Positions 7,974-12,184 of a stretch of 64,000 nt of DNA are shown in pieces. The translations under genes were made by a program, and so were the position numbers. Where the stretch lies: NCBI RefSeq assembly GCF_010727325.1, contig NZ_AP022565.1:558001-622000 (forward strand). The letters are read 5' to 3'. How positions within the stretch are numbered: position 1 is the first letter of the stretch; each line of letters starts with the position of its first letter. Under the pieces are notes generated by a model. The model had not been told where the DNA came from. It made no database searches and saw only the letters and a list, made by a program, of their open reading frames with translations. Source of the DNA: Mycolicibacterium alvei (GTDB lineage: Bacteria; Actinomycetota; Actinomycetes; Mycobacteriales; Mycobacteriaceae).

Positions 7974-10900
7974 TTAGGTTTCTCGCCAATACCAGTCTGA
8001 TGCTTCTGTTGCCTCGGCATCGACAACCTCGGCGTCCACCACGTTGTCGTCCGCATTGGACGAATCGGCAGCTCCACCCGATCCACCGGCGGCCTGCTCG
8101 GCCTGCGTGGCTTCGTAGATCGCCTGGCCCAGACCCTGGGACTCGACACCGAGCTTCTCCATGGCGTCCTTGATCGCGGAGATGTCGGAGCCTTCCAGCG
8201 CCGACTTGGCCTCGGCGATCGCACCGTCGACCTTGGTCAAGGTGTCCTCGGGAACCTTCGACCCGCCCTCGGCCTCACGCTGTTCCTTGACGAACTTCTC
8301 CGTCTGGTAGACCAGCGACTCGGCCTGGTTGCGGACGTCGGCCTCTTCGCGACGCTTGCGATCTTCGTCGGCTTGTGTTTCGGCGTCCTTGATCATCCGG
8401 TCGATCTCTTCCTTGGACAGGCCGGAGCCTTCCTGGATCTTGATCGTGTTTTCCTTGCCGGTGCCCTTGTCCTTGGCGGTGACGTGCACGATGCCGTTGG
8501 CGTCGATGTCGAAGGTGACCTCGATCTGCGGCACACCACGCGGGGCCGGCGGGATACCGGTCAGCTCGAAGGAGCCGAGCAGCTTGTTGTGCGAAGCGAT
8601 TTCGCGCTCACCCTGGAAGACCTGGATCTGCACCGACGGCTGGTTGTCGTCGGCGGTGGTGAAGGTCTCCGACCGCTTGGTCGGGATGGTGGTGTTGCGC
8701 TCGATCAGCTTGGTCATCACGCCACCCTTGGTTTCGATACCGAGGGACAGCGGGGTGACGTCAAGCAGCAGAACGTCTTTCACCTCGCCCTTGAGCACAC
8801 CGGCCTGCAGCGCGGCGCCCACTGCGACAACCTCGTCCGGGTTGACGCCCTTGTTGGGCTCCTTGCCCCCGGTCATTTCCTTGACCAGCTCGGTCACGGC
8901 GGGCATACGGGTGGAACCACCCACCAGCACCACGTGGTCGATTTCGCCGACCGAGATGCCGGCATCCTTGATCACCGACTGGAACGGCGAACGGGTGCGG
9001 TCCAGCAGATCCTGAGTGATCTTCTGGAACTCGGCGCGGGTCAGCTGCTCGTCGAGGAACAGCGGGTTCTTGTCGGCGTCGACGGTGATGTAGGGCAGGT
9101 TGATCGAGGTGCTCTGCGAGGAGCTGAGTTCGATCTTGGCCTTCTCGGCGGCCTCACGCAGCCGCTGCATCGCCATCTTGTCCTTGGTCAGGTCGATGCC
9201 GCTGGTGGCCTTGAACTTGTCGACCAACCACTCGACGATCCGGTCGTCCCAGTCGTCGCCACCGAGGTGGTTGTCACCGGAGGTGGCGCGCACCTCGACG
9301 ACACCGTCGCCGATCTCCAGCAGCGAGACGTCGAACGTGCCGCCACCGAGGTCGAAGACCAGGATGGTCTGTTCCTTGCTGCCCTTGTCGAGGCCGTAGG
9401 CCAGGGCGGCCGCAGTGGGCTCGTTGACGATGCGCAGCACGTTCATGCCGGCGATCTGCCCGGCTTCCTTGGTGGCCTGACGCTGAGCGTCGTTGAAGTA
9501 CGCTGGCACAGTGATGACCGCGTCGGTGATGTCCTCACCGAGGTAGGCCTCGGCATCGCGCTTGAGCTTCATCAGCACACGCGCGCTGATCTCCTGCGCC
9601 GTGTAGTTCTTGCCGTCGATCTCGACGGTCCAATCGGTGCCCATATGGCGCTTGACCGAACGGATGGTCCGGTCGACGTTGGTCACCGCCTGGTTCTTGG
9701 CGGGCTGACCGACCAGCACCTCACCGTTGCGCGCGAACGCGACGACGGACGGGGTAGTCCGGGAACCCTCAGAGTTTGCGACGACGACGGGTTCGCCACG
9801 CACCAGCATTGCAACGACGGAGTTGGTGGTCCCGAGGGTAATTCCTACGCTTCTCTGGGGTTGACTGCGCCAAGGCGGCGCGCTGTCGTTCGTTCCAATA
9901 TCGGCTTGGTGTAGAAACGCCAGCCCCGTTTGCGACCGAGGCAGTCCGAAAAGATGTGACGGAGATGCATGCGAGGGGCTGGAGCCGGTAAAGGTAATAG
10001 TTGCTTGGCCGAGGTCGGTAGCGGCCGCGAGGGGCCGAACCTGCCAAAGGGCGTCACGAACCTCCCGATCCTTTCCTGCCGCCTCGAAATCGAGCAACTT
10101 CAGCCCCGCGATGAGGAGGCGGAGTCCCTCCGTGTAGACGGGGGTTCCGCGCTCGGCTGCCCCGAGCAGCTCGTTCCGGGCACCGGCAAGCGACGCAGGG
10201 GACCGCTGCTCGGCCTCCTGCTGTTCGCGAATAATTCGCCACGCGCGGATAATCGCACCGTCGGGCATCCAGTCTGTCCAGGTGGGGCGGTTCATTGGCC
10301 ATGCGCGTAAGCGCTCCAGATCGCAGACCCGAAGGAGATAGTAGCCCCCCACCGCCGCGGCGGCCGGGTTGACCAGCAGCAACTTCTCTACTTGCTCGTT
10401 GATCAAGCCAGCGTTACCTAATGCGCCGATCGAGACATAGCCGAGCAGTGCCTCGACTAGATTGTTATCGGTCGCAACTGTGACCGCTAGCTCCGGCTCA
10501 GCCTTACTACCAGAAGGACGAATGGTTACCTCCAGCCGGTCAGCCGCGGGCAGTGACACCATCGTCCATCTGATGTGGGGTCCGCCGAACTGAAGCATGT
10601 GTTCGCGTCGGCTGATCTGGAACCAGAACCGAACCGCATCGGATTCCCATGTGGCCTTTGGCCGGGGCCAAGGTTCGACCCTCCACTTATCGTTGCTGCG
10701 CGACCACAACCGCAACCACACCGACCCATAGGCCGGCTCGTCGAAACTTGCGTTGGGTCCAAGGGAGGCCGACTTAAGCACGGCCGTCCTTTGTAAGAAA
10801 TCGTGCGGTGAAATCTGGCTAAGATCGATTACAAGTGGTGCCGGCGCGCTTACCCTTGCGACGACACTGCCGGTCAGCGACCGGCCCGACGGCAGCAGCA

Positions 10901-11066
10901 TCCGAACGCCGTAGCGTCCCGCGGGCACCTCAACGTGTCGCTGATCGCCGACTTCTATCGTTTGCTGCATGATCAAGCGAAGTTCTTTGTCAAGAATTTC
11001 GACCACCACCGGCGCGCCGGCTAGTTCCGGCTCATAGCTCTTCAGCTGAAGTTGAAACCCGCTCAT
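7974..11066 (-). CDS. Fusion of a caspase-associated N-terminal region to a complete mycobacterial-type DnaK (Hsp70)
   Basis: 1030 residues from the ATG overlapping the caspase stop (ATGA); a farther in-frame ATG at 11198 lies inside the caspase gene. Residues 1-85 look like a beta-sandwich. Residues ~200-325 are helical ([13 protein letters not shown]...VGGYYLLRV...[13 protein letters not shown]). Then comes a low-complexity linker, and from ~405 a full DnaK closely resembling mycobacterial Dna[12 protein letters not shown], phosphate-2 DLGGGTFD, adenosine motif VGGSTRMP, linker [12 protein letters not shown] and a [10 protein letters not shown] tail. The phosphate-1 motif reads GITLGTTNS, with Thr410 in place of the Mg-binding Asp, so ATP turnover may be impaired. 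The last 12 residues are unlike DnaK. Likely role: sensor or substrate of the caspase. Gene structure is clear, function inferred. Confidence 0.88.
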
Positions 11067-12184
11067 TTCGGCCGCACCCTCAGCACCTGAGGCGAGAATG
11101 GAGGTTCGAGAAGGACGCCGCGACGGCTCTTCTCGAAAGTCGAGTCGGCGAAGGAAGCCCCGACCGTGTAGTAGCCACCCCGGACCGTTAGTTCCCACGC
11201 GACAGATGCTGGCGGCGTCCGCATAATCCGCTTGGCTCGTGGTGGCGAGTCCGGCTTGTAGAACAGCGTTGCCTTGTCCAGAGCCAGGCGCGGGTCGCAG
11301 CCCAGTGTGAGCTTGACATCTGGGGGCGCATCCAGGCGGTAGAGCACCGTGGAGGCCAGACCAGGTCCTTTTGCTGTTGGCTGGCGTCGCCCGGACTGTG
11401 CCTCCAACAAATCGTCGATCCGCGCGCTGACGCGTTCAGTTCGAATAACCCAGTCCCCGTACTCGTCGGTGGTTGCAGCGCCACCTTCAAATGCACAAAT
11501 CAGAGCTGCGGTGAAGTGGGAAACCGCGCCAATCGGGCCGAAGGCGCTCTGAAACGGAGCAGACGATTGAAGGGTCAGGTCGTGTTCGCATTGGCGCTTT
11601 TTGTATGCAGTCAGCGTGACAAGTGGTAGGACGGTCGGACTTCCGAGCTTCTCCACCACCCCTGGCGTGACTCCGCGGCAAGCATCGATGAAGAAACACT
11701 GCGTCTGCGGTGGGTGTTGGAGAAAACCGTAGCGCGAGCTCTCGAACCCGAATGCTCCGACGAAATGGTTGTCGAACTGACCGAAATCACTGGCAAGAAG
11801 AATTTGTTCCGTGCTCTGGAGGCCGTGGCCACAGAAGTAGAACACCGCGACGTTGCCGGGGTTCGTGCTACACCGCGACATCCAGCTTTCCCACGCTGTG
11901 CGAATCCCGGCGATGGTCGGCTCGTGGAAGGACATGCCTAGGCCGGCTGGCGACGGATCGGCAGGTGACGGCGAAATCAGCATGTCAACGCTTGCCAGTG
12001 GAGCCTTCCAGCGTTCGTGGGCGTTTTGACATAGCCAGTTTGCGAATGCCAATGCCGAGCGTGGCGGCGACGTGAGCTGGCCGAGGTTACCGTACTGCAG
12101 CGGGTCCTCAATCGGGGTGCCCGTGCCGCCCTCCAAATGGGGATACCCGCCAACGCCGACGATCAATGCATGTGTCCCCGGCAT
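11063..12184 (-). CDS. Caspase-like (peptidase C14) protease
   Basis: 373 residues from the ATG at 12184; codons farther upstream come from the neighbouring IS element. It opens with [12 protein letters not shown], the first strand of a caspase fold. The catalytic dyad is visible: His120 in FYFCGHGL and Cys169 in FFIDACRG. The C-terminal ~90 residues are beta-rich and precede the ATGA junction with the DnaK-fusion gene. Bacterial caspases often act as the executioner in phage-triggered suicide systems; here the translationally coupled Hsp70 fusion is the obvious partner. No strong ribosome site precedes the ATG, and the IS end is only 14 bp away, so native 5' control has been lost or replaced. 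Confidence 0.88.

What the first reader, a model, noticed from the sequence alone, without database searches (positions are those of the whole stretch)
7974..12184. Caspase-like protease coupled to a protein fused to a full-length DnaK
A bacterial caspase (His120, Cys169 visible) is followed, with ATGA overlap, by a 1030-residue gene whose last ~625 residues are a complete mycobacterial DnaK. I do not know a described caspase system with a fused Hsp70. In a defence island this could be a proteolytic suicide module in which chaperone-client state is the trigger, or in which the Hsp70 holds the caspase off. The upstream kinase and membrane protein, on the same strand, may be further parts.
Basis: partly seen in the sequence, partly recalled or inferred. 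Interest (0 to 1): 0.9.

Follow-up and report, generated by a model that had tools for sequence, protein, structure and literature searches.

The report
Caspase adaptor carrying host DnaK copy
A bacterial caspase defence gene pair carries, fused to its partner protein, a nearly exact copy of the cell's own DnaK chaperone with an altered ATP site, which may serve as bait that lets the cell notice a phage attacking its chaperone.

Summary
A caspase gene (dyad H147/C196) overlaps, by ATGA, a 1030-aa gene: a 391-aa adaptor domain plus a DnaK. The pair is conserved: a caspase lies directly 5' of, or is fused to, the adaptor in 17 of 22 related loci examined (the misses are one adaptor fragment and four short weak hits), with an alpha/beta hydrolase (7) or an MBL-fold gene (9), never both. 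This resembles the published caspase-nuclease (Canu) layout (PMC12799240). The adaptor's C-terminus is a swap site: RAMA, mIHF, Lsr2, TIR, CHAT and, here and in M. peregrinum only, DnaK. The island copies differ at 65 of 1,824 bp in dnaK but 6 of 8,481 elsewhere; 49 of the 65 window variants equal its own housekeeping dnaK, pointing to gene conversion. Shared fused-specific changes fall at residues 4-23, including phosphate-loop Asp8 (now Thr), and in the tail. Best reading: a Canu-like system with a host-derived, probably ATPase-impaired DnaK as bait or sensor; untested. In the window an insertion sequence has replaced the hydrolase gene and the caspase 5' end, so this copy may be impaired.

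The parts
11066..12265 (-). Caspase (CanA-like): caspase domain about residues 28-311, predicted C-terminal beta (Ig-like) domain about 316-396; dyad H147 (11825-11827) and C196 (11678-11680). First ~22 codons of the longest ORF (12199-12265) are IS-derived
9894..11066 (-). Adaptor domain (residues 1-391): prealbumin/CnaB-like beta-sandwich 1-87, second beta domain 117-199, TPR-like helical repeat 199-352
   Evidence: 109 homologous proteins in one single-sequence and two profile searches, PF27295 in the precomputed annotation; model pLDDT 91.1, pTM 0.90; fold matches middling
9855..9893 (-). Short linker, residues 392-404
   Evidence: between the adaptor end used here and the first DnaK-aligned residue
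7974..9854 (-). DnaK module, residues 405-1030 plus stop (DnaK residue 3 to end, with an extra C-terminal tail)
   Evidence: NF001413 959.5 bits; 94.8% nt identity to the genome's own dnaK over 1824 bp
9837..9839 (-). Codon of residue 410 = DnaK position 8: Thr instead of Asp
   Evidence: Thr in 2 of 2 fused copies, Asp in 30 of 30 housekeeping dnaK compared
8570..9108 (-). Stretch in which the window's differences from M. peregrinum nearly all equal the genome's own housekeeping dnaK (putative gene-conversion tract, limits approximate)
12199..13554 (.). 1356-bp insertion sequence in place of the alpha/beta-hydrolase gene and the first codons of the caspase found in M. peregrinum
   Evidence: no match to L013 between 12198 and 13555; three further 99-100% copies in the genome

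Best explanation
It is a Canu-like caspase immune system whose adaptor has been given a bait. Shown by sequence: caspase, adaptor and (in M. peregrinum) an alpha/beta hydrolase form one cassette; the adaptor C-terminus is a module-swap site; here the module is a DnaK whose core is nearly identical to housekeeping DnaK, with tracts that follow the resident gene, and with shared changes at residues 4-23, including Asp8 to Thr, and a new tail. Inferred: the adaptor holds the caspase in a complex, as CanB does with CanA. The DnaK is not a working chaperone but a decoy for phage factors that bind, recruit or modify host DnaK. Engagement changes the adaptor, releases the caspase, and the caspase cleaves and activates the hydrolase (or, in sister loci, the MBL nuclease), causing death or arrest. 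Gene conversion would re-tailor the bait to each new host.
For: Caspase directly 5' of, or fused to, the adaptor in 17 of 22 related loci examined; hydrolase in 7, MBL in 9, never both (profiles built partly from the same rows). Caspase model closest to the MALT1 caspase-Ig paracaspase, as reported for CanA; CanA-CanB form a complex that activates CanC. Natural caspase-adaptor fusions: P0054, L052 and L053. C-terminal modules are swapped and include other whole host proteins: mIHF (P0001, P0041: 74-76% identical to SCO1480) and both Lsr2 domains (P0050). Many mycobacteriophages need Lsr2 (PMC10066036), mIHF stimulates L5 integration (PMC3724605), and a phage J-protein hijacks E. coli DnaK (PMC3486835). 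Fused dnaK: 65 differences in 1824 bp against 6 in 8481 bp (Fisher p=2e-42); sites where each fused copy matches its own host against the reverse, 18 to 1 (p=8e-5 if independent; sites are linked). Shared fused-specific residues: none in the core, six within the first 23, and the tail.
Against: No functional data; no phage known to target DnaK in this host. Gene conversion between 95%-identical copies in one chromosome needs no selection, and the ends would escape it for mechanical reasons, so near-identity does not prove a bait. The signal in M. peregrinum is weaker: its fused copy is closer overall to dnaK of another species (G176, 95%) than to its own (94%), and only one tract matches its own; 30 of the 49 window sites that equal its own dnaK equal M. 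peregrinum's dnaK too. Many C-terminal modules are DNA-associated (RAMA in 20 of 109 proteins, precomputed columns) or effector-like (TIR, CHAT, RES, trypsin), so the slot is not reserved for host proteins; mIHF and Lsr2 modules could equally sense DNA. Only two genomes carry the DnaK fusion. Homology to CanB was not testable. The window copy has lost the hydrolase.
Confidence: 0.42

Rival explanations
1. Proteostasis sensor: the DnaK module's substrate-binding domain reads the load of unfolded or phage-made polypeptides; client occupancy, slow to clear because the ATP site is impaired, switches the adaptor and frees the caspase.
For: Both fused copies share no private residue in the substrate-binding domain and lid; shared fused-specific residues lie near the ATP site and in the tail.
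Against: Does not explain why other adaptors carry mIHF or Lsr2 in the same position. Any heat shock would risk triggering.
Confidence: 0.25
2. Chaperone brake: the DnaK module binds and holds the caspase inactive until competing clients or phage co-chaperones pull it off.
For: Tight coupling by ATGA overlap; CanB complexes with CanA.
Against: Several adaptors beside a caspase are only 391-433 aa long and have no C-terminal module (L017, L018, L019, L020, L021, L054, L055), so the system does not need a DnaK brake. Of the 96 proteins with the core motif, 46 have at most 100 residues after it, some perhaps truncated by contig ends.
Confidence: 0.1
3. Poisoned-chaperone effector: caspase cleavage releases an ATPase-impaired DnaK that competes with housekeeping DnaK for co-chaperones and clients and blocks host-dependent phage steps.
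For: Core nearly identical to host DnaK, phosphate-loop Asp8 lost; the same C-terminal slot carries effector-type domains in relatives (TIR, CHAT, RES, trypsin).
Against: No cleavage site known. ATPase impairment at position 8 is inferred from recalled Hsp70 work, not from a call.
Confidence: 0.08
4. Passenger: an accidental fusion without function, homogenised with dnaK only because the copies are similar; in the window the system is decaying.
For: The hydrolase gene and the native caspase start are gone in the window; two genomes only.
Against: Open 1030-codon frame in both genomes; in the core pN/pS against housekeeping genes is 0.10-0.12, against 0.13 among housekeeping genes, though conversion alone could cause this; hydrolase, caspase and adaptor are all present in M. 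peregrinum.
Confidence: 0.15

Closest known systems
Canu (CanA-CanB-CanC, caspase-nuclease systems; Tuck et al., Science 2025, PMC12799240; passages and section 8 read)
   Same: Caspase with MALT1-like fold and predicted C-terminal beta domain; adjacent second gene; TPR-like and beta-sandwich parts; in sister loci a downstream MBL-fold gene; defence-island setting.
   Different: No MBL gene found in window 1-30000 or in L013 of M. peregrinum; an alpha/beta hydrolase upstream instead (lost in the window); adaptor fused to DnaK. Sequence homology of the adaptor to CanB could not be tested.
VMAP/MoxR-vWA and EACC1-caspase conflict systems (Kaur et al. 2020, PMC7159879; passages read)
   Same: Caspase always paired with a neighbouring alpha/beta hydrolase (VMAP); a constant caspase with up to 50 alternative C-terminal domains (EACC1); one GTPase class has an associated HSP70.
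   Different: No MoxR, vWA, VMAP, EACC1 or GTPase component in the window proteins scanned here; the variable slot is on the adaptor, not on the caspase; Hsp70 is fused and near-identical to the resident gene.
CoCoNuT CnuD Hsp70-like modules (PMC11090510; passages read)
   Same: Hsp70 NBD/SBD fused to a defence protein in some types, with a probably impaired ATPase.
   Different: Those are Hsp70-like modules with degenerate motifs in McrBC-type systems, proposed to bind RNA; here the DnaK is near-identical to the resident gene.
Plant NLR integrated decoys (recalled)
   Same: Idea of a host target protein fused into an immune receptor as bait.
   Different: Different proteins and effectors; no function shown here.

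Membership tests
Canu (CanABC) | CanA: caspase with C-terminal Ig-like domain, MALT1-like fold | tested here: met
Canu (CanABC) | CanB partner that complexes with CanA | not testable with these tools
   K. aerogenes CanB sequence not available; a conserved adjacent adaptor is present in the second-gene position
Canu (CanABC) | CanC: downstream gated MBL nuclease | tested here: not met
   No MBL profile match in window 1-30000 or in the 17 kb of M. peregrinum L013; present in 9 of 22 related loci examined
Canu (CanABC) | Antiphage activity needing caspase catalysis | not tested
   Experiment
Hsp70/DnaK | Full-length NBD, SBD and lid | tested here: met
   NF001413 positions 3-622 of 625
Hsp70/DnaK | Phosphate-1 motif Asp (DLGTTNS) | tested here: not met
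   Thr in both fused copies, Asp in 30 of 30 housekeeping genes compared
EACC1-caspase system | Caspase of EACC1-associated type above cut-off | tested here: not met
   NF047832 21.8 bits against a cut-off of 140
VMAP/MoxR-vWA system | MoxR, vWA and VMAP genes nearby | tested here: inconclusive
   None in the ten window proteins scanned with Pfam or the two others; not every ORF of the window was scanned

The most novel reading that the evidence does not exclude
Bacterial integrated decoys: caspase immune adaptors that display whole copies of host proteins which phages exploit (DnaK, mIHF, Lsr2), with the DnaK bait kept up to date in each new host by gene conversion from the resident gene while its ATP site stays altered. 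This would be a self-updating guard mechanism like plant integrated decoys.
Probability: 0.33. Interest if true: 0.95.

Novelty: new variant of a known kind. Interest (0 to 1): 0.8.

Why it matters
How caspase systems of the Canu kind sense infection is open; the Canu paper leaves open whether the phage helicase is recognised directly or through its activity. Here the adaptor has a module-swap slot, and the inserted module is identifiable, host-derived and of known biochemistry, so the sensing question becomes directly testable. Gene conversion tying an immune module to the gene it copies is also an unusual evolutionary link. Among the papers listed by searches of the open library (15 of 34, 20 of 23, 20 of 1,071, 0 of 0, 4 of 4 and 5 of 5 hits listed; mostly titles and abstract starts seen) I saw no description of a caspase system with a DnaK fusion or of bacterial integrated decoys.

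Tried and rejected
Rejected: assembly chimera (same junction in two genomes). Rejected: Hsp70 as a conserved part (no HSP70 domain in the precomputed Pfam columns of the 109 adaptor proteins listed; candidates are limited by length and number). Weakened: P0004, P0023 and P0068 as RpoA-CTD copies; these are RpoA-CTD matches (E 7e-10 for P0004, 5e-8 for P0068; P0023 from the precomputed table) of a helix-hairpin-helix type (recalled), not shown to be close copies. No adaptor relative in phages or in viral contigs. Adaptor hits in the first genus sample were 3 of 198 and in the class sample 1 of 394, the window's own. Two paper searches for the role of Asp8/Asp10 gave no direct source in the titles and abstract starts listed, so the ATPase effect is recalled. 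Caspase profile against PDB by sequence: no match. Foldseek of the adaptor: no match at E<=0.001. L022 (Paractinoplanes) has an adaptor fragment and no caspase match; of the four short weak-hit loci, L039 and L040 show no match to any of the four profiles and L087 and L088 only weak adaptor matches. A gamma-proteobacterial adaptor query found no plasmid record, and the third protein search gave no Klebsiella name. Plasmid hit H2 was not fetched.
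Full report
What is there. On the minus strand, a caspase gene (ORF 11063-12265) overlaps by ATGA a 1030-codon gene ending at 7974. Pfam finds Peptidase_C14 in the first (E=2.6e-8) and HSP70 in the second (E=8e-246). The fused gene consists of residues 1-391 (adaptor), a 13-residue linker, and DnaK from its residue 3 to the end plus an extra tail. The genome has a separate housekeeping dnaK at 3.11 Mb.

The pair is a conserved system. Adaptor relatives were found in Aquimarina, Cognataquiflexum, Methylobacter, Paraflavitalea, Lysobacter, Pseudomonas, Mycolicibacterium peregrinum, rhizobial plasmids and a few other mycobacteria. 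Of 22 related loci checked with four profiles, 17 have the caspase directly 5' of the adaptor or fused to it. The five misses are L022, an adaptor fragment, and four short loci of weak hits, of which L039 and L040 match none of the profiles and L087 and L088 only the adaptor, weakly. Seven loci have the alpha/beta hydrolase directly 5' of the caspase, nine an MBL-fold gene 3' of the adaptor, none both; L048 has neither, but its 1788-aa adaptor protein carries trypsin and phospholipase-D domains. The three Aquimarina loci and L052/L053 are near relatives, and the profiles were built partly from these rows, so these are not independent counts. The hydrolases share an HS[LM]GG nucleophile elbow and the MBL proteins an HxDxDH motif. 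The adaptor is rare: 8 of 396 genomes of the genus, two of these at E near 1e-3 and not borne out; 1 of 394 of the class; 3 of 396 of the phylum, two weak.

The C-terminal slot. Of 109 adaptor proteins, 96 have the core motif used; 46 of those have at most 100 residues after it and 50 have more. Modules include RAMA (20 of 109 by the precomputed Pfam columns), mIHF (2), Lsr2 (2), RpoA-CTD-like (3), pentapeptide, TIR, CHAT, RES, TPR, trypsin plus amidase and Ig-like. The mIHF modules score 130-133 bits against a cut-off of 60 and are 74-76% identical to SCO1480, the Streptomyces mIHF (organism recalled), while SCO1480 and the mIHF chain of 6tob share 60 of 99. P0050 has both Lsr2 domains, P0049 only the first. 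These are host-type proteins in the same position as DnaK, but not near-identical recent copies as far as could be compared; their own hosts are unknown. The length filter and candidate cap of the searches bias this census.

The DnaK is tied to resident dnaK. The window and M. peregrinum share an island at 99.8-100% identity in pieces from window 1 (the window's edge) to about 22,200, apart from the dnaK segment and insertions; beyond it the two matching pieces found are 83 and 87% identical. That points to recent transfer. Within 10.3 kb aligned, 65 of 71 differences lie in the dnaK segment, six elsewhere (Fisher p=2e-42). At these 65 sites the window copy equals its own housekeeping dnaK at 49, the M. 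peregrinum copy does so at 15, neither at one. Of the 49, 30 equal the M. peregrinum housekeeping gene too, so they say only that the M. peregrinum fused copy differs from both. Sites where each fused copy matches its own host outnumber the reverse 18 to 1 (p=8e-5 if sites were independent, which linked sites are not). The 30 housekeeping genes compared are the two hosts' own and the 28 closest to the M. peregrinum fused copy in a search of 396 genomes. Against these, the window copy has a stretch closest to its own dnaK and that of G123 (alignment 810-1080), and the M. peregrinum copy one identical to its own and that of G176 (1440-1620). Against the simple picture: overall the M. peregrinum fused copy is closer to G176 (95%) and a few others than to its own host's dnaK (94%), and other segments of both copies are closest to third species. 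The best account is a mosaic made by gene conversion from resident dnaK genes, some perhaps in earlier hosts.

What escaped conversion. In the first 30 codons the fused copies differ from housekeeping genes at pN 0.171 and pS 0.461, against 0.015 and 0.211 among housekeeping genes; in codons 31-580 the values are alike (pN 0.021-0.022 against 0.024; pS 0.174-0.210 against 0.188). The residues shared by both fused copies and found in none of the 30 housekeeping proteins are 4, 8, 18, 20, 21, 23 and the tail from 615; single-copy ones are 72 (M. peregrinum), 495 and 496 (window). Position 8 is the Asp of the phosphate-1 loop. That its loss cripples ATP hydrolysis is recalled from Hsc70 work; two searches did not yield a source. 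Loss of ATPase with kept surfaces suits a bait or a slow sensor better than a working chaperone.

How it may work. Shown: cassette, fold, module swapping, near-identity to host DnaK, mosaic tracts, Asp8 change. Inferred: the adaptor holds the caspase; the DnaK module detects phage factors that use or inhibit DnaK, and the freed caspase activates the hydrolase. A phage J-protein hijacks DnaK in E. coli (PMC3486835, passages read); [quoted passage not shown] Two further host proteins used as modules are phage host factors: Lsr2 for many mycobacteriophages (PMC10066036, abstract and passages) and mIHF for L5 integration (PMC3724605, passages). That coincidence is suggestive, not proof: mIHF and Lsr2 also bind DNA, and RAMA, the commonest module, is a DNA-methylase-associated domain by name. 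A client sensor is the main rival.

State in the window. An insertion sequence with three other near-identical copies in the genome occupies 12199-13554, where M. peregrinum has the hydrolase gene and the first codons of the caspase. The caspase core and the fusion remain open, but the window copy lacks its predicted effector and native start. An intact arrangement exists in M. peregrinum.

Noticed in passing
window 14460-15953 (-): Ser/Thr kinase with best PADLOC match PD-T4-6 (E=4e-91), next to a 203-aa ORF without a Pfam match (13749-14360); both also in M. peregrinum L013.
   Followed up: partly
window 5482-7070 (+): Two overlapping genes: DUF6932 (PADLOC candidate PDC-M63A, E=6e-10) and a 298-aa protein without Pfam match.
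   Followed up: no
window 20488-21912 (-): ApeA-like protein (ApeA_NTD1 and HEPN_Apea), another defence-type gene in the island.
   Followed up: no
window 2112-5398 (-): Type I restriction-modification M and S subunit genes.
   Followed up: no
window 7160-7894 (-): Resolvase-family gene with a one-base gap (at 7515) against the 272-aa ORF of M. peregrinum L013.
   Followed up: no
window about 19073-20524: About 1.45 kb present in the window but absent from the near-identical M. peregrinum island, probably a second insertion.
   Followed up: no
window 18361-18470 (-): SAM-IV riboswitch (67.4 bits, gathering score 38).
   Followed up: no
L052 4396-6522 and L053 6571-8697: In two other mycobacteria caspase and adaptor are fused into one 708-aa protein flanked by MBL-fold genes on both sides.
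   Followed up: partly
L048 6004-11370: Bradyrhizobium plasmid: 1788-aa adaptor protein with trypsin and PLD domains, preceded by a caspase and an M12 metallopeptidase.
   Followed up: partly
P0032, P0033, P0045: Adaptor proteins with long C-terminal RDLDRA-type repeats of unknown role.
   Followed up: no
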